DNA of 21,417 bases from a virus: the IMG/VR virus record IMGVR_UViG_3300021093_003639, positions 1 through 21,417 of that record, one strand, 5' to 3'. The notes under the pieces were generated by a model that was given only the letters and a program-made list of their open reading frames with translations, did not search any database and had not been told where the DNA came from. Both the position numbers and the translations under genes were made by a program. Positions 5,045-20,554 of the stretch are shown here, one piece after another. Positions within the stretch are counted from its first letter, which is position 1. Each line of letters begins with the position of its first letter.

Positions 5045-5655
5045 AATTTTTTATAAATGTAATCGTGTTTTATTTTATTGACTACTTGATATCCCAATGA
5101 ATCTAATAGTGCGCCTGCTGGCGATCGTTTATCGGTTAGTTCCATGACTATTACAGGATACGAAGCACAAATATAGTGTTTGCCGCCTTGTAATACAGCT
5201 AGCTCATACCCTTCAACGTCAATTTTAATAAAATCAGCTAGTGGAAGATTTAAATTATCTAAGGTGTTAATATTAACTACAGTATTGCCGCCGTTGTCAA
5301 TTCGCGTTAGGCCATAATTTTCAAAATTTCTTTGCATTTGTATGGTTCCTATGGTAGTTCCTAGTGCTGTTTGAAAAATAGTTGTGCTGGGAGCATTTAA
5401 TTTTAAAAATTCACAATGATCGGCAATTGGTTCAATAGCAAAATTCTTTGCAAACTTTTTTTCTAAAATGAAACTCCATAGTCCAAAATTAGCACCAATA
5501 TCTATGCTAACATCAAATTTGTCTACATACGATAGTGCCAACGTTCTAACAGGTTCTTGGTATTCTGCAGGTAATCCTGCATCTGCATTTCTTTTTATAA
5601 ATTTTGAAAAATGAGATTCGTTGTTGGGCAACCAGTAATTATAAAATTTTTCCAT
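5041..5655 (-). CDS. FkbM family SAM-dependent methyltransferase
   Basis: A 204-residue methyltransferase with SAM motif I as SIDIGANFGLW (residues 50-60), an acidic ribose-binding strand (FAIEP) and the FkbM signature DFIKIDVEGYELAVLQGG. The complete length is typical of the short phage forms. FkbM proteins O-methylate sugar or polyketide hydroxyls, so methyl-capping of a surface sugar is the likely role. The start codon overlaps the stop of the cupin gene (TAATG) and its own stop overlaps the acyltransferase start (ATGA). The FkbM-next-to-cupin arrangement is repeated in the second cassette at 6731-7745. Confidence 0.9.
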   Translation of the reverse strand: MEKFYNYWLPNNESHFSKFIKRNADAGLPAEYQEPVRTLALSYVDKFDVSIDIGANFGLWSFILEKKFAKNFAIEPIADHCEFLKLNAPSTTIFQTALGTTIGTIQMQRNFENYGLTRIDNGGNTVVNINTLDNLNLPLADFIKIDVEGYELAVLQGGKHYICASYPVIVMELTDKRSPAGALLDSLGYQVVNKIKHDYIYKKL

Positions 5656-6008
5656 TATTTTACCTTGGTACCAACTGTGCGACGTTTGATGTCACTGTGA
5701 TTGAACTCTGCCCAATACAGTTCAAATGCCACTCCATCCTCTACACCTTCAAATTGGTGAATTTTGCCAGGCTTGACTTGTGTGAAGTCTCCAGCTTTGA
5801 GAACAGTTTCATCCACTAGTCCTTCCTGATCCGCATCCTGCCACACACGCACAATCATTTTGCCCGACTCCACAAAAAATCCGTTCCATTTGAATTCATG
5901 TTCGTGTTCTGAACATTTGAATCCTTTTTTAAATTCAATGCGGTGAAATTCTAGCACACCATTGGCGTGTATCAATTCTGTTTGACCCCATATTTTGCCT
6001 GCAATCAT
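5655..6008 (-). CDS. Cupin-domain protein, paralogue 1
   Basis: A 117-residue single-domain cupin. Motif 1 is seen as CSEHEHEFKWNG (His-x-His) and motif 2 as GDFTQVKPGKIHQFEG, giving three histidines for a metal. Cupins of this kind are sugar epimerases/isomerases, dioxygenases or binding proteins, and the sequence does not decide between them. It is nearly the twin of the protein at 7392-7745: the first 24 residues are identical and most of the C-terminal half matches. It is the first gene of a seven-plus-gene cassette, with a perfect late promoter 30 bases upstream and a clear Shine-Dalgarno AAAGGA. Expression late in infection is therefore expected. Confidence 0.88.
   Translation of the reverse strand: MIAGKIWGQTELIHANGVLEFHRIEFKKGFKCSEHEHEFKWNGFFVESGKMIVRVWQDADQEGLVDETVLKAGDFTQVKPGKIHQFEGVEDGVAFELYWAEFNHSDIKRRTVGTKVK
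5947..6008. repeat. Dispersed repeat shared by the two cupin genes (copy 2 at 7684-7745)
   Basis: The 5' ends of both cupin genes are nearly identical over about 62 bases, with around five differences. Similarity then continues at a lower level through both 354-base genes. It looks like a duplication, or gene conversion focused on the 5' end. Confidence 0.75.
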
Positions 6009-7391: not shown

Positions 7392-7745
7392 TTAAATTAT
7401 TTTTTTGAACCCAACAGTTTCTCTTTGAATGTCATCGTGATTGAATTCTGCCCAATATAATTCAAATGCCACTCCGTCCTCCATGCCTTCAAACTGATGC
7501 ATGTAGCCTGGTTTGACTCTGGTAAAGTCACCTGGTCCCAATATGGTTTCATCCACAAGATCCTGTTGATCTTTCTGCCACACACTGACCTTCATGCGAC
7601 CTGTCATCACATAAAATCCATTCCATTTGAATTGATGTTTGTGTTTGCTGCACACACCACCTGCTCGGAAATCTATTCTGTGGAATTCCAACACACCATT
7701 GGCGTGTATCAGTTCTGTTTGCCCCCATATTTTGCCTGCTATCAT
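7392..7745 (-). CDS. Cupin-domain protein, paralogue 2
   Basis: A 117-residue cupin, the twin of the gene at 5655-6008. It keeps the metal-binding pattern (CSKHKHQFKWNG and GDFTRVKPGYMHQFEG) and the near-invariant C-terminal FELYWAEFNH. The differences cluster between residues 25 and 65, around motif 1 and the loop after it, which could change substrate while keeping the fold. It heads cassette B and is followed by an FkbM gene, as in cassette A. A GATAAATA late-type motif lies 40 bases upstream and an AAAGAG ribosome-binding site just before the ATG. The reaction is unknown. Confidence 0.87.
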   Translation of the reverse strand: MIAGKIWGQTELIHANGVLEFHRIDFRAGGVCSKHKHQFKWNGFYVMTGRMKVSVWQKDQQDLVDETILGPGDFTRVKPGYMHQFEGMEDGVAFELYWAEFNHDDIQRETVGFKKII

Positions 7746-8660: not shown

Positions 8661-9962
8661 ATGTCGTCTGCCTCCAATTTGTCTGTTTACTCTGTAGAAG
8701 ATTGTTTAGAAATAATGATGGGCATCAGTCACATCATAGTGATCCCTGCATTTGAAGTACAGTACAAAGATAGACATATTCTATCCAGCATTGCAACTCA
8801 AACCTTTAAAGGACTTGCTTTAACAGATAGGCAATTAGCAGTGTTAAAAAAAATATTTGTTGACAACTATGCCAAACAATTTGCTGATCGCAACATTGAT
8901 CTTCCTCAAAGTTTGAACCGTTTGAGAAATCCACTTAGAACCATTGATCGTAGAACTTTTATCAAAGTCATGCCAGTCAAGGATATTCCAAACATAAATT
9001 TAGTGCTCAATCAGGCAAATTTCAAAGATGAAATAAAGGCCATTGTCATACGTTTTCCATTTAATGTACAATATGCCAAACTAGTAAATGAAATCAAAAA
9101 AAGATTTGAATATGAAGACAAATATTACAACTACGACAATCATTACGTATTTCCTTATGAAGAAAAATATGTGTACCACATTCTACATAAATTCAAAGAT
9201 AAAATTGAAGATATAGACCATGAGCTACTAGAAAATTTTAAAAAATTAATTCACATCAGTAATAATATGCAAAATTATGTGCCTGGAGTTTATAATAATG
9301 AGATTCGAAATGTGCCAGACATATACAAAGAATTTATCACAGAAAAATATGGCTCACCCAACCAAGAAAATCTTCTCATGTATTTAGATAGAAGGGAAGC
9401 ACTCGCACTTGAACATTTTGATGCACCAGCTAGGGAAGATTGTTTAAAAAAGTATGGCATACTGACTCAGAAAATTGTTAACAGAAAATCGTTTATTGTG
9501 AACATCAGCAGAGAAATTTGGAATTTGGATCAGGTGGTGCATTCGCTTATAGATTTAAAAAGGTTCCCGTTGCTGGTGATCATAAATGAAAAGTCAGCAG
9601 CAGACAATCTCACAGAAACATACACACGTTTTAGAAATCTTTTTGACAGCAGTAAAATCAGCGTGCTGTTTAGATTACCAAACTCTGGGGAAAAAAACAT
9701 AGAATTCAATCAACAAATATCTAAATTTGGCATCAATAATTCAGTTGATGAAAACACAAAAATAGTTTATATTAATAATAAAAGAGTGCCAAAACCTTTG
9801 CTCAAATCTAATTGGAGACCAGAATGTGTTTTGACTTTAAAAAGTGAAAAAGAACACAATCAGGTACAAAGTTATTATCAATTGAGCGACTTGGTAATAC
9901 AGTATGACACTATAGAAAGTCCGTGGAATATGTGGCATTATGACGTAGAATATATTAAATGA
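8661..9962 (+). CDS. Conserved-type phage protein of unknown function, next to UvsW
   Basis: A 433-residue protein I cannot assign. It has no membrane segment or signal peptide. The N-terminal part holds FKGLALTDRQLAVLKKI, a Leu-Thr-Asp-Arg-Gln pattern like that near the start of some phage replication or helicase proteins, followed by a charged middle rich in Tyr and Lys. The C-terminal third has beta-alpha alternation (FIVNISREIW, PLLVIINEKSAA, ISVLFRLPN, TKIVYINNKR) like a Rossmann- or helicase-type domain, but no Walker A motif. Its stop overlaps the UvsW start (ATGA), so a partner role with UvsW in DNA repair or recombination is a guess. The start at 8661 follows a strong promoter with almost no leader; an in-frame ATG pair at 8715 is the alternative. 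Confidence 0.8.
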   Translation: MSSASNLSVYSVEDCLEIMMGISHIIVIPAFEVQYKDRHILSSIATQTFKGLALTDRQLAVLKKIFVDNYAKQFADRNIDLPQSLNRLRNPLRTIDRRTFIKVMPVKDIPNINLVLNQANFKDEIKAIVIRFPFNVQYAKLVNEIKKRFEYEDKYYNYDNHYVFPYEEKYVYHILHKFKDKIEDIDHELLENFKKLIHISNNMQNYVPGVYNNEIRNVPDIYKEFITEKYGSPNQENLLMYLDRREALALEHFDAPAREDCLKKYGILTQKIVNRKSFIVNISREIWNLDQVVHSLIDLKRFPLLVIINEKSAADNLTETYTRFRNLFDSSKISVLFRLPNSGEKNIEFNQQISKFGINNSVDENTKIVYINNKRVPKPLLKSNWRPECVLTLKSEKEHNQVQSYYQLSDLVIQYDTIESPWNMWHYDVEYIK

Positions 9963-11416
9963 ACACTTGTAAAATAATTATACAGGATGAAGTCAACGTG
10001 AAAATAGAAGGACTGCCTGTGGATGTGCGTAGAAGTATATCTAATAAACTGAAGTTTGCAGTGCCATATGCTAGATATCTTCCTCAATACAAGTTGGGAA
10101 GATGGGACGGTAAAGTTGGATTCTTTGGCTTAGGTGGTAATGGTTTTCTCAATCATTTGGACACCATCATTAAACTAATCAATGACAACGGCATTGAAGT
10201 GGAAGAAGTTGTGGACAATAGGAAAAAGGTTCAATTAAAATTTAACAAAATAGATAAAAATTATTTTCATAATAAAACTTGGCCTAAAGGTCACTTGTGC
10301 GAAAATCAACAAATAGTACTGCGTGATTATCAAGTGGAAGTTGTAAATAATTTTTTAGAAAATCCACAGTCGCTTCAAGAAATAGCAACAGGGGCTGGTA
10401 AAACAATAATCACTGCTTGTCTTTCTAAAATGTGCGAACCTTATGGTAGAACTGTAGTCATAGTGCCAAACAAAAGTTTAGTCACACAGACTGAGGAAGA
10501 TTACATCAACACAGGGCTGGATGTGGGAGTTTATTTCGGAGACAGAAAAGAATTAAACAAAACACACACAATTTGTACTTGGCAAAGTTTGAATGTATTG
10601 GATAAAAAAGGCAAAGACGGACAGTCCGCATTTACATTGACTGAATTTTTGCATGGAGTTACCACAATCATTATAGATGAAGTGCATCAGGCTAAAGCAG
10701 AAGTATTGAAAAAATTACTCACACATCATTTAAGAAACGCAGCAGTAAGATGGGGACTCACAGGAACCATACCCAAAGAACAATTTGAATTTCAGGCATT
10801 GCTCACCAGCATAGGGCCTGTGATCAATCAGATATCAGCTAAAGAATTACAGGACAAAGGCATATTGTCCAAATGTCATGTGAATATTGTTCAATTGGTT
10901 GATACCGTGGCACACAAAAATTATCAGGAAGAATTAAAATATTTGATGACATTTAAAACAAGAATGGAATATATTGCAAAATTATTGAGTAAAATAAAAG
11001 ACAGCGGTAACACATTGATACTAGTGGATAGATTAGCAGCTGGGGAAATGTTAACCAAATTAATTCCTAACAGTGTGTTTGTTCAGGGAGAAATGAGTGT
11101 TAAAGATAGAAAAGAAGAATATGATGAGATCGGTAGCACAAATAACAAAGTTATCATAGCCACATATGGCGTGGCATCTGTGGGAATCAACATTCCAAGA
11201 ATATTTAATTTGGTTTTGATAGAACCAGGAAAAAGTTTTGTAAGAGTAATACAGAGCATAGGCAGAGGCATAAGAAAAGCACATGATAAAGACTTTGTAC
11301 AAATATGGGATATTACTAGCACTTGTAAATTTGCTAAACGACATCTTACACAAAGGAAGAAATTTTATAATGAAGCTAACTATCCTTTTACTTTAGAAAA
11401 ATTAGAGTGGAATTAA
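9959..11416 (+). CDS. uvsW: UvsW-type superfamily 2 DNA helicase
   Basis: A 485-residue helicase. In T4, UvsW unwinds branched DNA and R-loops, shutting off origin replication and driving recombination-dependent replication. The N-terminal domain (about 1-110) matches the small UvsW substrate-binding domain with the typical RYLPQYKLGRWDGKVGFF. Helicase motifs follow in order: Walker A ATGAGKT (143-149), DEVH (240-243), motif III GLTGT (266-270), motif V region ATYGVASVGINIP, and motif VI QSIGRGIRK (432-440). All catalytic residues are present, so it should be active. The start overlaps the previous stop (ATGA). It is encoded in an early-type operon, unlike T4 where uvsW is late. Confidence 0.95.
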   Translation: MNTCKIIIQDEVNVKIEGLPVDVRRSISNKLKFAVPYARYLPQYKLGRWDGKVGFFGLGGNGFLNHLDTIIKLINDNGIEVEEVVDNRKKVQLKFNKIDKNYFHNKTWPKGHLCENQQIVLRDYQVEVVNNFLENPQSLQEIATGAGKTIITACLSKMCEPYGRTVVIVPNKSLVTQTEEDYINTGLDVGVYFGDRKELNKTHTICTWQSLNVLDKKGKDGQSAFTLTEFLHGVTTIIIDEVHQAKAEVLKKLLTHHLRNAAVRWGLTGTIPKEQFEFQALLTSIGPVINQISAKELQDKGILSKCHVNIVQLVDTVAHKNYQEELKYLMTFKTRMEYIAKLLSKIKDSGNTLILVDRLAAGEMLTKLIPNSVFVQGEMSVKDRKEEYDEIGSTNNKVIIATYGVASVGINIPRIFNLVLIEPGKSFVRVIQSIGRGIRKAHDKDFVQIWDITSTCKFAKRHLTQRKKFYNEANYPFTLEKLEWN

Positions 11417-11924: not shown

Positions 11925-12049
11925 TGACACACAAAATTTATAGAAATTCATTCATTGATCTTTTTCTAAAAGAAAAAGATTCTAATTGGATGGGTAATGG
12001 AGGGCACTTGTCCTCAAACACAAACAAAAAACAAAAAGGAAAAAGATGA
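11924..12049 (+). CDS. Small 41-residue protein
   Basis: A short gene wedged exactly between its neighbours: its ATG overlaps the previous stop (TAATG) and its TGA overlaps the next start (ATGA). Such double coupling is the style of this whole operon and argues that it is real. The product is basic and polar, beginning MTHKIYRNSFIDLFLKEKDS and ending in a Lys/Asn/Gln-rich tail; no domain is recognisable. The A-rich end of the gene doubles as the ribosome-binding region (AAAAAGGA) of the transporter gene, so a pure translation-coupling role cannot be excluded. Confidence 0.6.
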   Translation: MTHKIYRNSFIDLFLKEKDSNWMGNGGHLSSNTNKKQKGKR

Positions 12050-12684
12050 AAATACTAAACAATCTGTTACAAAACACAGATAAAGTTTTAATTAGAAATC
12101 TAGTTATATTTCACACTCTTATAATTGCAGTAAGTAATTATTTGGTGACCATTAGATTTAACTTGTTTTCTCAAAAAATAAATCTTTTAGGATGGGAAAC
12201 TAGTTTTCCGTTAGCGGCTGCGGCTTTTACATTTCCATTGGTAGTGGTAGCCAGTGACCTCACGGTAAGAATAGTAGGCAAACAAACTGCAAGAGCAGTG
12301 GTAGCCATATCAATGATACCAGCCATATTAGCTTCGGTGGCTGTATTGTTAATTTTAAAAGATCCACATGCTGTTAGAGTAGGAGTAGCATCTGGTGCTG
12401 CTTATGCAGTAGGCACAATGTTAGACGTATATGTGATGCAGTGGATAAGAGAAAAATGGACCAGCAATTGGTGGTTGGCTCCAGCACTAAGCACTGTTGC
12501 TGCAAATATCATTGACACATATACTTTTTTCTACACAGCATTTTATCCACAGCCTTGGGTGCATGCTGTTGCTTTCAATAATACTTTGGTTAAAATCATA
12601 GTTGGGTTCATAGTTTTCTTACCTGCCTATGGAGTCTTATTGATGTACTTGCAAAACAAATTGCAACGGAAGTTAGTAGGTTAA
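12046..12684 (+). CDS. yhhQ: YhhQ-type queuosine precursor transporter (VUT/DUF165 family)
   Basis: A 212-residue inner-membrane protein with about six hydrophobic segments. The family signature is clear: VVASDLTVRIVGKQTARAVV in the first loop (family pattern D-x-x-x-x-x-x-G-k-x-x-A-R) and LSTVAANIIDTYTFF near the fourth segment (family pattern S-x-x-x-x-x-x-D-t-x-x-F). E. coli YhhQ imports preQ0/preQ1, the 7-deazaguanine precursors of queuosine. In a phage this could feed tRNA queuosine or 7-deazaguanine DNA modification, which protects some phages from restriction. No other preQ or DNA-deazaguanine gene is visible here. A good ribosome-binding site (AAAAAGGA) precedes it. Confidence 0.85.
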   Translation: MKILNNLLQNTDKVLIRNLVIFHTLIIAVSNYLVTIRFNLFSQKINLLGWETSFPLAAAAFTFPLVVVASDLTVRIVGKQTARAVVAISMIPAILASVAVLLILKDPHAVRVGVASGAAYAVGTMLDVYVMQWIREKWTSNWWLAPALSTVAANIIDTYTFFYTAFYPQPWVHAVAFNNTLVKIIVGFIVFLPAYGVLLMYLQNKLQRKLVG

Positions 12685-14140: not shown

Positions 14141-14821
14141 ATGTTGACTCAAGAAAATATTGCATACTTATACGACAAATTGACCCAGTATTGGCCACGT
14201 TATTCTAATAAAAAACCTGCTGCCAAAATACATAAGCAAGCATACACCAGTTTGATAGGAGTGATGCTGTCTGCACAGAGTCAAGACGCAAGAACTGCAG
14301 TGGCCTGCAAACAATTATTTGCATTAGCAAGTACTCCACAAGACATGATTAAATTAACTCAAGAAAAAATAATTGAAGCTATTAAACCAGCTGGACTGTA
14401 CAATGCTAAATCAAAAAATATATTAGCAACATCTAAAATGTTGATAGAAAAGTTTAACAGCAAAGTACCCCAGACACAGGAAGAGTTGATGACTTTGCCT
14501 GGAGTTGGCAGAAAAAGTTCAGATATAATAATGAGATTCGTTTGGGGACAACCTCATATCGCAGTGGATACACATGTGTTTCGATTACTGTGGAGATTAG
14601 GATGGACGGACACCTTAAACGAAAGCAAGTCAGCTGAAATTGTAAATCATTCTACGCCAGACAGATACAAATATGCTGCTCATATGCAACTAATTACTCA
14701 CGCCAAAAGAATCTGTAAATCACGCTCTCCTAGATGTGATATCTGCGTGTTAGAAAAGATTTGTCTAAAAAGAAATATAAATGTTCCAAAAAGCAAATTG
14801 CGAGAGGTAGCCTATGCCTGA
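14141..14821 (+). CDS. nth: Endonuclease III (DNA glycosylase/AP lyase)
   Basis: A 226-residue Nth-type enzyme that removes oxidised pyrimidines and cuts at abasic sites. Visible are the helix-hairpin-helix LPGVGRK (119-125) with catalytic Lys125, the Gly/Pro-rich loop leading to AVDTHVFR with catalytic Asp143, and the iron-sulphur loop Cys192-x6-Cys199-x2-Cys202-x5-Cys208, all in the E. coli arrangement. The enzyme should be fully active. The start is fixed by the fold, because the next Met (42) lies inside the catalytic domain, yet there is no leader or Shine-Dalgarno. It overlaps the mini DnaE-like gene by eight bases. A phage copy may serve UV/oxidative repair or turnover of host or modified DNA. 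Confidence 0.94.
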   Translation: MLTQENIAYLYDKLTQYWPRYSNKKPAAKIHKQAYTSLIGVMLSAQSQDARTAVACKQLFALASTPQDMIKLTQEKIIEAIKPAGLYNAKSKNILATSKMLIEKFNSKVPQTQEELMTLPGVGRKSSDIIMRFVWGQPHIAVDTHVFRLLWRLGWTDTLNESKSAEIVNHSTPDRYKYAAHMQLITHAKRICKSRSPRCDICVLEKICLKRNINVPKSKLREVAYA

Positions 14822-15389
14822 TATTGATATAGATTTCGCGGATAGAAGTCAAGCGTTAGCACTGCTTGAACATAGAATAGCCACTATAGAATCAAATAAA
14901 AAACACAACACAGGAATTTATTTTACAGAGATACCACATAATCCCATAGATAATCAATCTACTATTTCCTATACAGAAGCAGAGACCAGAGGATATTTTA
15001 AATTAGATTTTCTAAATGTCAGCATATACAAAGACGTGCAGAGTGAATCACATCTTAAAAAATTAATGACTACCGAACCCACTTGGGATTTATTACAGGC
15101 TAAAGAGTTTGTTGATCAACTTTTTCATGTAAACGGACATACAGAAATTTTGCAAAAACTAAAACCTAAAAGTATAGAAGAACTAGCTGCTGTACTTGCC
15201 ATAATTAGACCCGCCAAAAGACATCTGTTAAATAAAAGTTGGAAAGAAATATTTGAACAAGTCTGGACCAAACCGGATGATAATTCATATTACTTTAAAA
15301 AATCTCATGCAGTATCTTATGCAGTTGCAGTTGTGGTACACATGAACTTAATTTGTGAGCAATTAAAAAATGGATCAAACAGTAGTTAA
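14814..15389 (+). CDS. Miniature DnaE-like (family C DNA polymerase) protein
   Basis: A 191-residue protein that aligns by eye in order with the DNA polymerase III alpha core. It starts directly with the palm motif MPDIDIDF (Asp3, Asp5, Asp7; E. coli Asp401/403). Then come KHNTGI (E. coli KHAGGV), YFKLDFLN with Asp65 (third catalytic Asp, E. coli KFDFLG), LQKLKPKSIEELAAVLAIIRP (E. coli LIKRLKP...ALVALFRPGP), and FKKSHAVSYA (E. coli FNKSHSAAYA). About 100 residues between the first two blocks and about 100 before the last are missing, along with the PHP domain, thumb and the Gly-rich motif. It could be an inactive relic, a partner for the larger DnaE-like protein at 20628, or a regulator. It is translationally coupled to nth. 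Confidence 0.8.
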   Translation: MPDIDIDFADRSQALALLEHRIATIESNKKHNTGIYFTEIPHNPIDNQSTISYTEAETRGYFKLDFLNVSIYKDVQSESHLKKLMTTEPTWDLLQAKEFVDQLFHVNGHTEILQKLKPKSIEELAAVLAIIRPAKRHLLNKSWKEIFEQVWTKPDDNSYYFKKSHAVSYAVAVVVHMNLICEQLKNGSNSS

Positions 15390-15537
15390 AACTAATTCTA
15401 GAGAGGTAATGTGTTTTGGAGAGGATGATTGGGGAGGTCATCCTACAGTTTTTTACACAATAGGCTCAGCTAATCAAGTCACTTGCGGATACTGCAACAA
15501 ACTTTTCATTTATGAAGGTAAACAAGATGATGAGTAG
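15370..15537 (+). CDS. zf-CHCC zinc-finger small protein (NDUFS6-like)
   Basis: A 55-residue protein overlapping the end of the mini DnaE-like gene by 20 bases. It shows the zf-CHCC pattern very well: Cys15-x8-His24-x14-Cys39-x2-Cys42, with GGHPTVFY after the first ligand and CGYCNKLFIY around the last two. This is the zinc fold of mitochondrial complex I subunit NDUFS6 and of short bacterial proteins, mainly in Alphaproteobacteria. Its role in a phage is unknown; it may be a picked-up host gene that binds zinc or helps an iron-sulphur or redox system. The domain call is good even though the gene is short. Confidence 0.78.
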   Translation: MDQTVVKTNSREVMCFGEDDWGGHPTVFYTIGSANQVTCGYCNKLFIYEGKQDDE

Positions 15538-15772
15538 AACAATGCAGGATGGCACTGTGCGTCCTGAACTTGAAGAGTCTGTAACTCTTTCTATCACCAC
15601 TAAATGTCCAGAAAAATATACCTTGATAGATAATGAAACAGGACAAATGTATAAAGGCAATAATTCATTGGAATATGGAAAACAATGGTTATTAATCAAT
15701 GAAAATTCACCTAATACTTCTAGTGAAATAAAAGAAATTTTAGATGCTGTTGAAGAACTATTGAAACGTTAA
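15527..15772 (+). CDS. Hypothetical protein, about 81 aa
   Basis: A small acidic protein, not recognised. The frame is open from an ATG at 15512, but the ATG pair at 15527/15530 is better placed: GAAGG at 15514-15518 gives an eight-base spacing to 15527, and the overlap with the zf-CHCC stop is then only a few bases. The product has a beta-rich middle (SVTLSITTKCPEKYTLIDNE, then GKQWLLINEN) and a C-terminal helix (SSEIKEILDAVEELLKR). Its stop overlaps the stop of the convergent gene through a shared TTAA. Confidence 0.7.
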   Translation: MMSRTMQDGTVRPELEESVTLSITTKCPEKYTLIDNETGQMYKGNNSLEYGKQWLLINENSPNTSSEIKEILDAVEELLKR

Positions 15773-16140
15773 CTTTTTGGTTTGCGAACCAACTGCACTG
15801 ATTTTCTTTTGGTTCTTTTAATTGCTAAATTATATAGATTCACTGTTGGGCCTATCACTAATCTCACGTCCTTAGTGTTCATTATCATCAAAATGTGTTT
15901 AAATTTTTCTATTTCTTTTCTTAAAAATATACCGATTGGTATCATCCTGTTGCTTTCCCACCACCAAGTTTCACAGAGTTGTAAAAAGGCTTTTTTTTCA
16001 TCATCTTGAACAATGTTAGTGTACACATACATGCTGGTGATTTGATTATCTTGATTGTTGATTATGCCGACGTATTCTTTTTCACCGTAGTGAACAACAC
16101 TGATAAAGGGGAAATTTTCTTCAATATCTTTACGCAACAT
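15769..16140 (-). CDS. Conserved marine phage protein of unknown function
   Basis: A 123-residue soluble protein beginning MLRKDIEENFPFISVVHYGE, with KEYVGIINNQD, an unusual aromatic patch ETWWWESNRMIPIGIF and a basic tail (IKRTKRKSVQLVRKP). I recall this family as widespread in T4-like marine phages on the strand opposite to its neighbours, without known function; I cannot verify this here. It is the only minus-strand gene right of 7745. It converges on the preceding gene with overlapping stop codons and diverges from the structural gene at 16176. A TATAAT on the minus strand (16161-16166) with a poor -35 could drive it. Confidence 0.8.
   Translation of the reverse strand: MLRKDIEENFPFISVVHYGEKEYVGIINNQDNQITSMYVYTNIVQDDEKKAFLQLCETWWWESNRMIPIGIFLRKEIEKFKHILMIMNTKDVRLVIGPTVNLYNLAIKRTKRKSVQLVRKPKS
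15777..15792. terminator. Hairpin at the convergent gene ends
   Basis: Perfect 6-bp inverted repeat TTGGTT / AACCAA with a TGCG loop, just past the stop of the + strand gene and inside the last codons of the minus-strand gene. It is the strongest dyad in the region and sits where a bidirectional terminator would be expected. No T-run follows on the + strand, so intrinsic termination is doubtful. Confidence 0.4.
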
Positions 16141-17002: not shown

Positions 17003-17009
17003 CACGCTA
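16992..17009. promoter_or_regulatory. Dyad symmetry over the primase -10 box and start codon
   Basis: Perfect inverted repeat TAGCGT / ACGCTA around a 6-base centre (ATAATC). It covers the whole -10 box, and its right arm ends on the A of the ATG. It is noticeably more GC-rich than its surroundings. It could be a repressor operator or, in read-through mRNA, a hairpin hiding the start codon. Confidence 0.5.
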
Positions 17010-18016
17010 TGGGTATAGTCTTCGATACTATTGTACAACATCTGCCGAGAAAAAGAAAACAAACGCCTAGCGGTTGGATGTCCTTCAATGCTCCTTGCTG
17101 CATACACAACGGCACGGGTCAAGACACAAGGGGTAGAGGCGGTCTAATTCAAAATGCAGAACAAGGATTAAGTTATCACTGTTTTAATTGTGGATACAAA
17201 GCCAGCTACGTTTACGGCAGAAATCTCAGTTACAAAATGAAAAAGTTTTTACAATGGTTGAACGTGCCTGATGACACCATCAGCAAACTGGCACTTAGCG
17301 TGTTGCAGCACACAGATGAAAAAAGTATCAACAACCAACTCAATAGACTGCCAAAATTTAATATAGTGAAATTACCTGACAAGGCAAGAACAATCTATGA
17401 CTGGCACAAATATTTTGTCAACCACAATCAAGAACCAAACCCAAATTATATAAAAGTATTGGAGTATGTCAATCAACGTCGTCTCAATGTGAATGAGTAT
17501 GAGTTTTATTGGTCGCCAGACTATTCGGATAGAATGATCATTCCTTTTTACTATCAAAATAATATAGTGGGTTGGACAGCTAGAAAAATTAAAGACGACA
17601 AAGTAAAATATCTGTCTGAGCAACAACCAGGTTATGTTTTTAATTTAGATTCACAAGATGATGATAGACATTTTGTTTTGGCAGTAGAAGGTCCAATTGA
17701 TGCTATTCTGTTGGATGGCATCGCTTTCTTGGGCAGTGAAGTTAAACAACAACAAAGTTTATTAATAAACAGTATTGGAAAAAAAATTATAGTGATCCCA
17801 GACAGAGATGCAGCAGGTGAAAAATTAATTATAGACGCTATGGAACAAGGTTGGAGTGTAAGCATGCCAGAATGGGAACCAAATATAAAAGATATAAATG
17901 ATGCTGTGATTAAATATGGTAGACTATACACATTATACACAGTAATTAATTCGGCAGAGGAACAACAGTTAAAAATTAAACTGAAAATGAAAAAATGGCT
18001 ATCATCAAAAAACTAA
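17009..18016 (+). CDS. 61: DNA primase, T4 gp61 type
   Basis: A 335-residue primase that makes RNA primers for lagging-strand synthesis together with the gp41 helicase. The N-terminal zinc domain has Cys30/Cys31-x-His33 and Cys58-x2-Cys61. The TOPRIM-like catalytic domain shows EGPIDA (227-232, metal-binding Glu) and PDRDAAG (264-270, the Asp-x-Asp pair). The next in-frame Met after the first is residue 24, close to the zinc site, so the start at 17009 is very likely right even though it has no leader. Only the small 40-aa gene and the carbamoyltransferase separate it from the helicase gene, as in other T4-like marine phages. Length matches gp61 (about 340 aa). Confidence 0.93.
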   Translation: MGIVFDTIVQHLPRKRKQTPSGWMSFNAPCCIHNGTGQDTRGRGGLIQNAEQGLSYHCFNCGYKASYVYGRNLSYKMKKFLQWLNVPDDTISKLALSVLQHTDEKSINNQLNRLPKFNIVKLPDKARTIYDWHKYFVNHNQEPNPNYIKVLEYVNQRRLNVNEYEFYWSPDYSDRMIIPFYYQNNIVGWTARKIKDDKVKYLSEQQPGYVFNLDSQDDDRHFVLAVEGPIDAILLDGIAFLGSEVKQQQSLLINSIGKKIIVIPDRDAAGEKLIIDAMEQGWSVSMPEWEPNIKDINDAVIKYGRLYTLYTVINSAEEQQLKIKLKMKKWLSSKN

Positions 18017-18118: not shown

Positions 18119-19105
18119 ATGATTATCTGGGGCATAACCGCAAACAATCACGATGCTAGCATAGCAGTGTTTGAACATAAGATACTTGGCTTAACAAACA
18201 CAAAAAAATTAAAATTGCTGTGGGCAGGCATGACTAAAGATTTTTCTAATATTCCTAATGATCCCCATCTGAATGATGCTATGGTGGATTATCTAATGAA
18301 AGAATTTGGTGCTCCAAAAAAAATCTATTTTTATGAACGTCCTTTTCTTAAAAGCATTAGGCAATTGTTGGCTGGACAAGGTTTTAAATTTAAACAAAAT
18401 AATATAAAAAAATATCTTGCTAGATACAATATCTATGCTCCTATAAAATACATAAGGCATCACAAAGCTCACGCAGCCTATGGATATTATACCAGTAAAT
18501 TTCGCAACGCAGCTATCATAGTTTTAGACAGCATAGGAGAGATAGAAACCTTTTCCATATGGCAAGGTCACAGAGATAAAATAACCTGCACTTACAGTCA
18601 GGGATATCCAAACAGTGTGGGTTTATTCTACAGTGCAATGACACAAAGATGCGGATTTATTCCAAATAAAGATGAAAGTAAATTAGAACAATTGGCACGC
18701 TCAGGAGATTGGAAAATCCATTATGATACTTTTTTTGATGATTTAATTAAAAAAATTATGCCTTTCAAACTAAAAATTAATCTACATCGCGGATGCAGAG
18801 CTTGGTTGCCTGAATTGACTCAAGAAAAAGATTTAACTAATTTAGCAGCAACGACTCAAAAAATATTTGAAGAAATAATTTTAGAGGCATGCAGTTGGTG
18901 TAGAATGTATCTCAAGAGTCGCAATTTAATTTTGGTTGGTGGATGCGCTCTAAATAAAACTGCTGTGAATAAAATAAGTCCTCTATGGAATGACTTTTAT
19001 GTGCCAAAACATCCTGGTGATCCAGGTGCATGCATAGGTGCTGTGTTGGCTGCGCATGAAAACCATATTGACTTTGATCCCAATGTGTGGTATAATAAAA
19101 ATTAG
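18119..19105 (+). CDS. NodU/TobZ-like carbamoyltransferase (short form)
   Basis: A 328-residue ASKHA-fold enzyme that transfers carbamoyl from carbamoyl phosphate through carbamoyl-adenylate. Visible are NNHDAS (9-14), the metal-binding HHKAHAAYG (114-122), LDSIGEIETFSIW in the phosphate-binding position, NKDESKLEQLA (183-193) and GGCALNK (274-280). It is shorter than NodU/TobZ (about 560 aa) because the C-terminal carbamoyl-phosphate domain is absent or cut to a remnant. It sits between primase and helicase genes, so DNA is a plausible target; phage carbamoyltransferases acting on 5-hydroxymethylcytosine in DNA are known from metavirome work. Without the C-terminal domain a different carbamoyl source or partner is possible. 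Confidence 0.85.
   Translation: MIIWGITANNHDASIAVFEHKILGLTNTKKLKLLWAGMTKDFSNIPNDPHLNDAMVDYLMKEFGAPKKIYFYERPFLKSIRQLLAGQGFKFKQNNIKKYLARYNIYAPIKYIRHHKAHAAYGYYTSKFRNAAIIVLDSIGEIETFSIWQGHRDKITCTYSQGYPNSVGLFYSAMTQRCGFIPNKDESKLEQLARSGDWKIHYDTFFDDLIKKIMPFKLKINLHRGCRAWLPELTQEKDLTNLAATTQKIFEEIILEACSWCRMYLKSRNLILVGGCALNKTAVNKISPLWNDFYVPKHPGDPGACIGAVLAAHENHIDFDPNVWYNKN
19068..19096 (+). promoter_or_regulatory. Near-consensus sigma70 promoter before the gp41 helicase gene
   Basis: TTGACT (19068-19073), 17-base spacer, TATAAT (19091-19096), lying in the end of the carbamoyltransferase gene. Unlike the other three promoters of this type, it leaves about 12 bases of leader carrying the AGGA ribosome-binding site before the ATG at 19115. 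Confidence 0.74.
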
Positions 19106-19114
19106 GAAAATATA

Positions 19115-20554
19115 ATGGTGACCAAACAAAACACAGATTATGGCTATGATATACAAAAGGTATATCTTGAAATTATGTTGAGCGATGCAGATGCCTTTGT
19201 AAGATGTCAAAGTATATTTGATTCTACTTTGTTTGATAGAAGACTGCAATCTGCTGCAGAATTTATATATGATTATGTGAGTCAATATAATTCTTTGCCC
19301 ACCCAAGAAATTGTTAATAGTAGTTGCAAAACTGATCTAAAGATTCCCAATAACCTAAATGAACAACATTATGATTGGTTGTTGGATGATTTTGAAACAT
19401 TCATACGACATAAAGGATTAGAAAGAGCAATTCTTAAATCTGCTGACATGTTAGAAAAAGGTGAATATGGTCCCGTAGAAGATTTAATAAAAAAAGCAGT
19501 TCAAGTAGGATTACATAAAGATTTAGGCACAGATTATTGGCTAGATCCTAAATTAAGATTGCAAAGTTTAAAAAATAATAATGGTCAAGTGAGCACTGGC
19601 TGGAAGACTTTAGATAAAAAACTATTTGGGGGATTTAATAAAGGTGAGTTGAATATATTTGCAGGCGGATCAGGAGCAGGTAAATCTTTATTCCTAGCAA
19701 ACTTGGGAGTAAATTGGGTATTGACAGGATTAAATGTGTTGTATCTATCTTTTGAATTAAGTGAAGGATTGATATCAATGAGATTAGACAGCATGTTAAC
19801 TAATATCCCAAGTAGAGAAATTTTTAAAGATTTGGATGGCGTGGAAATGAAAGTTAAACTGTTAGGGAAAAAATCAGGCAAATTTCAAATCAAATACATG
19901 CCTAGTGGTAAAAATGCCAACGATATCAGAACATACATAAAAGAATTTGAAATAAAAAATAATACAAAATTTGATGTGGTGTTGGTAGATTATTTGGATC
20001 TTATGATGCCGATTAGTAAAAAAGTTAGTCCGAGCGATTTGTTTGTGAAAGATAAGTTTGTATCAGAAGAACTAAGAAATCTTTCTATGGATTTACAAGT
20101 GTTATTTGTGACAGCTTCACAGTTGAACAGAGGAGCAGTAGAAGAAATAGAATTTGATCATTCGCACATAGCAGGCGGATTATCTAAAATACAAACAGCT
20201 GACAATGTATTTGGTATATTTACAAGTAGAGCAATGAGAGAAAGAGGTAGATATCAGATACAGCTGATGAAGACACGTTCTTCTAGCGGAGTTGGACAAA
20301 AAATAGATTTAGAATTTGATATTGATTGTTTAAGAATTAGAGACTTGTCAGAAGATGAAGAATATAAAGAATTTGAAAAAAGAAAATCAACCATATTTGA
20401 TAATCTTAAGAAAAGCAGCATTATGTCAGAAGAAAACAAAACTGAATCTACGATTCCTCAAGATCCTACTCAAGGCAGTAATGTGGGCAGAATCAAACCA
20501 GAATCTGACACAACAAAACTTAGAGAATTTCTAAGCAATATCAACAAAGAATAA
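19115..20554 (+). CDS. 41: Replicative DNA helicase, T4 gp41 / DnaB type
   Basis: A 479-residue hexameric helicase that moves 5' to 3' on the lagging strand. The N-terminal helical domain (about 1-140) is followed by a linker and the RecA-like core: Walker A GGSGAGKS (184-191), catalytic Glu in LSFEL (Glu214), Walker B VLVDYLDL (289-296), and the QLNRG sensor region followed by a Ser/Lys/Ile-rich loop and SSSGVGQKIDLEFD, as in DnaB. The last 50 residues are charged and low in complexity. The start is supported by AGGA eight bases upstream and by a promoter at 19068. Together with the primase this forms the primosome. Length is that of gp41 (475 aa in T4). Confidence 0.95.
   Translation: MVTKQNTDYGYDIQKVYLEIMLSDADAFVRCQSIFDSTLFDRRLQSAAEFIYDYVSQYNSLPTQEIVNSSCKTDLKIPNNLNEQHYDWLLDDFETFIRHKGLERAILKSADMLEKGEYGPVEDLIKKAVQVGLHKDLGTDYWLDPKLRLQSLKNNNGQVSTGWKTLDKKLFGGFNKGELNIFAGGSGAGKSLFLANLGVNWVLTGLNVLYLSFELSEGLISMRLDSMLTNIPSREIFKDLDGVEMKVKLLGKKSGKFQIKYMPSGKNANDIRTYIKEFEIKNNTKFDVVLVDYLDLMMPISKKVSPSDLFVKDKFVSEELRNLSMDLQVLFVTASQLNRGAVEEIEFDHSHIAGGLSKIQTADNVFGIFTSRAMRERGRYQIQLMKTRSSSGVGQKIDLEFDIDCLRIRDLSEDEEYKEFEKRKSTIFDNLKKSSIMSEENKTESTIPQDPTQGSNVGRIKPESDTTKLREFLSNINKE

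What the first reader, a model, noticed from the sequence alone, without database searches (positions are those of the whole stretch)
14814..15389. A 191-residue miniature DnaE-like protein that starts exactly at the catalytic motif
Seen: five DnaE landmarks in correct order in under 200 residues, with about 100-residue blocks (fingers, and the region before KSHA) removed cleanly and the reading frame intact. The second residue already begins PDIDIDF. A decaying gene would not keep the three Asp, KH-x-x-G and KSHA-x-x-YA motifs. This suggests selection for a small palm-based protein, possibly an inhibitor, nuclease, nucleotidyltransferase or partner subunit.
Basis: partly seen in the sequence, partly recalled or inferred. 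Interest (0 to 1): 0.76.

Follow-up and report, generated by a model that had tools for sequence, protein, structure and literature searches.

The report
Half of a split phage DNA polymerase
The short gene encodes the second half of a stripped-down bacterial-type DNA polymerase that a group of giant phages carries in two far-apart genes; this was predicted in 2021, so the gene is a well-conserved new member of a known but untested oddity.

Summary
In detail: 14814-15389 encodes 191 aa starting M-PDIDIDF, with the DnaE landmarks in order. It is not a lone miniature protein but the C-terminal half ("B", phrog_11778) of a split minimal DnaE. The other half ("A", phrog_11127) ends just before this motif (...GRGSS...EFLR) and lies 15-224 kb away in other phages. 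Eight cultured jumbo phages (RaK2, GAP32, PA5oct, Atu_ph07, Phosso, SCTP-2, XacN1, Vibrio 2.275.O) and both contigs over 200 kb carry A, B and a T4-like PolB. In E. coli DnaE numbering A covers about 262-393 and B about 400-809, with the thumb and mid-fingers missing. The catalytic Asp are invariant in 53 B sequences; dN/dS is about 0.13. B lies beside primase-helicase genes, A beside the gp44 clamp loader. Iyer et al. 2021 (PMC7824862) already described this split, so this is a new member from an uncultured phage. Apparently unreported: the exact split site across about 80 sequences of each half, and a compact PHP-less one-chain DnaE 5 kb downstream (20628 to window end). A is not on this 21-kb fragment. 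A-B binding, activity and role remain inferred.

The parts
14814..15389 (+). Piece B: C-terminal half of the split minimal DnaE (palm strands with the DxDxD and third Asp, reduced fingers), 191 aa, phrog_11778
   Evidence: motif order, PHROG/Pfam matches, conserved start and length, only C-family polymerases above background in the structure comparison
14817..14837 (+). PDIDIDF, first two catalytic Asp (D3, D5) plus D7; the split point is just upstream
   Evidence: D3, D5, D7 invariant in 53 sequences
15000..15008 (+). K-x-D (K63, D65): third catalytic Asp
   Evidence: Invariant in 53 sequences; C-family rule E. coli D401/D403/D555 (PMC3919608)
20628..21417 (+). 5' part (263 aa) of a compact single-chain PHP-less DnaE (541-551 aa in relatives) with its own GSA, PDVDIDF and KVDIL; runs off the window
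   Evidence: (PF07733 E=1e-44)
17009..18016 (+). T4 gp61-like DnaG-type primase, conserved downstream neighbour of piece B
   Evidence: phrog_47 E=2e-36; same order in RaK2, PA5oct, GAP32, Phosso
19115..20554 (+). T4 gp41-like DnaB-family replicative helicase, conserved downstream neighbour
   Evidence: phrog_19 E=1e-70; synteny
15769..16140 (-). Convergent small ORF (phrog_11637) conserved at this position in the synteny block
   Evidence: a minus-strand small ORF follows piece B in RaK2, Phosso, Atu_ph07, PA5oct, SCTP-2, Vibrio 2.275.O, GAP32
9959..11416 (+). UvsW-like helicase, upstream end of the conserved block
   Evidence: synteny with RaK2, GAP32, SCTP-2

Best explanation
The ORF is the C-terminal subunit of a two-gene, stripped-down C-family (DnaE-like) polymerase core of T4-related jumbo phages. 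Subunit A (phrog_11127, about 170-200 aa) brings the GRGS helix of the polymerase-beta-type palm, which in this fold contacts the incoming nucleotide. Subunit B (this ORF) brings the metal-binding Asp strands and a reduced fingers region. The two bind without covalent joining and complete one active site across the chain break, which lies in the loop between 'FLNP' and 'PDxDxDF'. Having no PHP, thumb, clamp-binding or OB domain, the enzyme probably adds short stretches: primer extension or handoff, lagging-strand gap filling or repair, beside the family-B replicase. Shown here: homology, split site, invariant catalytic residues, purifying selection, co-occurrence in all long genomes tested, replisome synteny. 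Inferred: A-B binding, polymerase activity, the in vivo role, and presence of A in this particular phage.
For: Profile and Pfam matches. Partner A found in eight complete phages and both contigs over 200 kb that carry B. A ORFs end EFLR in 75 of 80 and FLRD in 5 of 80 contigs; B ORFs start at the DxDxDF motif in 80 of 80. A matches E. coli DnaE 262-393 (E=8e-5); the B model matches only C-family polymerases above background (E. coli 400-809, Z 8.6 over 175 residues; best Z 8.9). D3, D5, D7, K63, D65, R132, H165 invariant in 53 B sequences; GRGSS invariant in 41 aligned A sequences. Median dN/dS 0.13. In B's model the palm part has low confidence (56-79) and the fingers 85-97, and A alone folds poorly, as expected of interdependent halves. 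Neighbours: B with primase and helicase, A within 1.1-1.6 kb of the gp44-type clamp loader in RaK2, Atu_ph07 and XacN1. Published prediction that the two reconstitute one enzyme (PMC7824862).
Against: A's model is weak (mean pLDDT 64) and finds no DnaE match by fold. Loss of the thumb and part of the fingers could mean little or no polymerase activity. The ten A+B genomes are related phages, so co-occurrence is partly shared descent. A was not seen in any contig that carries the compact DnaE; these are fragments of at most 101 kb.
Confidence: 0.8

Rival explanations
1. A+B form a nucleotidyltransferase (for example one that adds untemplated nucleotides to DNA or RNA ends) and not a template-directed polymerase: the palm chemistry is kept, but without thumb and full fingers no template is held.
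For: The thumb and part of the fingers are missing while the metal ligands are invariant.
Against: The fingers motifs RPxK and KxHAxxYA, which simple transferases lack, are nearly invariant and modelled with high confidence; neighbours are replisome genes.
Confidence: 0.12
2. B acts alone as a DnaE mimic that inhibits or recruits the host replicase.
For: B alone is a DnaE fragment and is encoded far from A.
Against: A mimic has no need of invariant catalytic Asp; the complementary half is kept in every long genome tested.
Confidence: 0.03
3. A decaying fragment of a full DnaE.
For: It is short compared with bacterial DnaE (about 1,160 aa).
Against: dN/dS median 0.13, constant length and start in 80 contigs, synteny from Enterobacteria to Rhizobiales phages.
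Confidence: 0.005
4. In the compact-DnaE lineage (window and relatives) A has been lost and B now works with the compact one-chain DnaE.
For: All 12 longer compact-DnaE contigs tested carry B 4-8 kb upstream; none shows A.
Against: All are fragments. The closest B relative of compact-bearing L067 is L022/G001 (237 kb), which has A about 120 kb from B and no compact DnaE, so A may simply be off-contig.
Confidence: 0.08

Closest known systems
Split minimal DNA polymerase III alpha of group 2.2 jumbo phages (Iyer et al. 2021, PMC7824862); PHROGs 11127 (N half) and 11778 (C half)
   Same: Same division into an NTP-binding half and a metal/template-binding half, distant genes, accompanying PolB in cultured relatives
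   Different: The window is an uncultured lineage at most 54% identical to cultured members. It also carries a compact one-chain DnaE, whereas the paper says that phages with the split version contain no other Pol III domains
Bacterial DnaE / PolC (C-family DNA polymerases)
   Same: Catalytic Asp triad, K-x-D, RPxx and KSHA fingers motifs; fold match Z 5.6-8.9
   Different: Two chains; no PHP, thumb, helix-hairpin-helix, clamp-binding or OB region
RaK2 ORF124, GAP32_282, PA5oct gp264, Atu_ph07 gp074, Phosso 437
   Same: Direct counterparts of the ORF, same gene order
   Different: 36-54% identity; RaK2 and GAP32 are annotated with a start some 13-16 codons further upstream
Split gp43 (PolB) of some T4-like phages and split-intein DnaE of cyanobacteria (recalled, not tested here)
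   Same: A replicative polymerase encoded in two pieces
   Different: Here the break lies inside the palm next to the catalytic motif and the ORF ends show no intein sequence

Membership tests
Split minimal Pol III alpha of jumbo phages (phrog_11127 + phrog_11778) | C-half protein of about 190 aa with DxDxD, third Asp and reduced fingers | tested here: met
   phrog_11778 E=6e-66 over residues 3-183; alignment A2
Split minimal Pol III alpha of jumbo phages (phrog_11127 + phrog_11778) | Separate N-half gene (GRGS module) in the same genome | tested here: inconclusive
   Present in all ten long genomes or contigs with B but not on the 21-kb window, which is a fragment
Split minimal Pol III alpha of jumbo phages (phrog_11127 + phrog_11778) | T4-like replisome context and PolB replicase | tested here: inconclusive
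   gp41, gp61 and UvsW homologues are in the window; PolB found in ten of ten long genomes but not on compact-DnaE contigs of up to 101 kb, all fragments
C-family DNA polymerase (DnaE/PolC) | Three catalytic Asp (E. coli D401, D403, D555) | tested here: met
   D3, D5 and D65 invariant in 53 sequences; rule from PMC3919608
C-family DNA polymerase (DnaE/PolC) | Complete palm, thumb and fingers with PHP and (HhH)2 in one chain | tested here: not met
   Thumb, part of fingers, PHP and HhH absent from A and B
C-family DNA polymerase (DnaE/PolC) | Template-directed DNA synthesis | not testable with these tools
   Needs purified A and B

The most novel reading that the evidence does not exclude
The window's phage lineage runs two C-family enzymes (the split A+B core and a compact PHP-less one-chain DnaE 5 kb downstream), probably beside a T4-like PolB, with a division of labour such as primer extension versus elongation or repair; or B has switched partner to the compact DnaE.
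Probability: 0.2. Interest if true: 0.62.

Novelty: new member of a known kind. Interest (0 to 1): 0.42.

Why it matters
If A and B do rebuild an active site, this would be among the smallest C-family polymerase cores, with the break inside the catalytic palm. It would give a clean system to ask which parts of bacterial Pol III are needed for catalysis, and why phages that own a family-B replicase keep a second, bacterial-type polymerase.

Tried and rejected
Natural A-B fusions: none among 80 A contigs, where every A ORF stops 33-34 residues from the start of GRGSS, and B is not detectable in the A loci. Family-A polymerase in these phages: none found. Fold search with the A model gave only noise. 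Compact-DnaE presence or absence on the B tree looked scattered, but the 'absent' label is unreliable because the gene can lie over 8 kb away (L037 and L266 are the same contig), so no gain/loss claim is made. That the mini gene stands in place of a full DnaE: rejected, a longer DnaE lies beside it in this lineage. Intein trans-splicing: no extra sequence at A's end or B's start. A-B coevolution was not tested, because only ten genomes give paired sequences. Whether the contigs are marine was not checked.

Full report
Observation. The ORF 14814-15389 is real and as described: 191 aa, ATG directly before PDIDIDF, then KHNTG, KLD, IRPAK and KKSHAVSYA. It matches phrog_11778 'DNA polymerase' (E=6e-66), phrog_405 (E=3e-8) and Pfam DNA_pol3_finger (E=1e-4). 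It overlaps the end of an endonuclease III-like gene (14141-14821) by 8 bases.

Distribution. A tblastn search at a lax limit found 112 phage records, led by Phosso (54%), Atu_ph07 (54%), the PA5oct group (50%) and RaK2/121Q/GAP32-type phages (37-42%). In IMG/VR, 555 of 599 candidate stretches encode a relative, with the limit reached. In 80 of 80 contigs the ORF can begin at the same residue before DxDxDF, often with an in-frame stop within a few codons upstream, and is about 185-194 aa long. Gene order is conserved from Enterobacteria phages to Rhizobiales phages: [piece B] - convergent small ORF - structural ORF - gp61 primase - gp41 helicase (XacN1 differs). The window has the same order, with extra genes inserted.

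The missing half. A scan of 16 genomes and contigs with phrog_405 showed a second short ORF in the long ones, matching only the stretch just before PDxDxDF. These 'A' proteins end like GVGRGSSVASYVLYLIGVHKINSIQYGLDWREFLR (G001) and match phrog_11127 and the N-terminal part of PF07733. In 80 further A contigs, 75 end EFLR and 5 end FLRD; cultured phages end EF[LF] plus one to three residues. Against solved structures A aligns to E. coli DnaE 262-393 and B's model to 400-809. Together they tile the DnaE palm with only a short loop lost between them. All eight complete phages and both contigs over 200 kb that have B also have A, 15 to 224 kb from B. A lies 1.1-1.6 kb from the gp44-type clamp loader gene in RaK2, Atu_ph07 and XacN1; contigs L136 and L162 have an RFC-like ORF (MKELWVEKYRP...) about 2 kb from A (read by eye).

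Selection and residues. NG86 dN/dS over 45 pairs with dS 0.05-1.0: median 0.13, maximum 0.29 (pairs are not independent). D3, D5, D7, H31, G34, K63, D65, R132, P133, K135, H165 and Y169 are invariant in 53 sequences that include distant cultured phages. GRGSS is invariant in 41 aligned A sequences; Atu_ph07, not in that alignment, has GRGSC. The AlphaFold2 model of B from 54 sequences has mean pLDDT 83, with fingers at 85-97 and the palm part at 56-79. In VIA-align the C-family polymerases are the only rows above Z 3.2. A alone gives a weak model.

Other polymerases. All eight cultured phages and G001/G002 carry a T4-like PolB, and no family-A polymerase was found. The window carries in addition the start of a compact one-chain DnaE (20628 to the end). 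Relatives show 541-551 aa with PF07733 and the fingers domain but no PHP match, and a C-terminal part that looks like an OB fold by eye (not tested). All 12 longer contigs with the compact DnaE also have B, 4-8 kb upstream. The 484-kb uncultured phage LR756508 has compact DnaE and PolB, but neither A nor B was detected as a separate gene. No contig with the compact DnaE showed A or PolB, but all are fragments of at most 101 kb.

What is known. Iyer et al. 2021 (PMC7824862) reported for group 2.2 jumbo phages a phage-specific minimal Pol III alpha, split into two distantly encoded proteins, next to PolB, and proposed that the two reconstitute an enzyme for one strand or repair. Earlier genome papers noted a truncated alpha subunit: Atu_ph07 gp316 (PMC6102473), which is piece A, and CBB_328, 172 aa (PMC5259590), which by size and place is probably piece A. 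No experimental study was found (open-licence papers only). The finding is therefore a new member of a known kind. Not found in that literature: the exact split point across about 80 sequences of each half, and the coexistence with a compact one-chain DnaE.

Mechanism. Most likely A and B associate and complete a polymerase-beta-type active site across the chain break, giving a minimal C-family enzyme that helps the PolB replisome with short synthesis. Homology, split site, constraint and synteny are shown. Binding, activity and role are inferred.

Noticed in passing
window 15370-15537 (+): A 55-aa zinc-finger protein (zf-CHCC, PF10276, E=3e-11, the NDUFS6-type motif) whose start overlaps the end of piece B by 20 bases; unusual cargo for a phage replication block.
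   Followed up: partly
window 18119-19105 (+): Nol-like carbamoyltransferase gene (Carbam_trans_N, phrog_1601) sits between the primase and helicase genes.
   Followed up: no
window 14141-14821 (+): Endonuclease III-like glycosylase (HhH-GPD; iron-sulfur motif match below its cut-off) directly upstream of and overlapping piece B; PA5oct has an annotated endonuclease III-like gene near its piece A instead.
   Followed up: no
window 5655-6008 (-) and 7392-7745 (-): Two very similar 117-aa cupin-type proteins (MIAGKIWGQTELIHANGVLEFHRI...) among sugar and methyltransferase-like genes.
   Followed up: no
window 12046-12684 (+): Vut_1 family (putative vitamin uptake transporter) membrane protein gene (PF02592, E=2e-21) in the phage replication region.
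   Followed up: no
LR756508.1 47385-49016 (locus L297 3001-4632): A 484-kb uncultured phage carries the compact DnaE with PolB but without separate A or B genes, a possible alternative to the split pair.
   Followed up: partly
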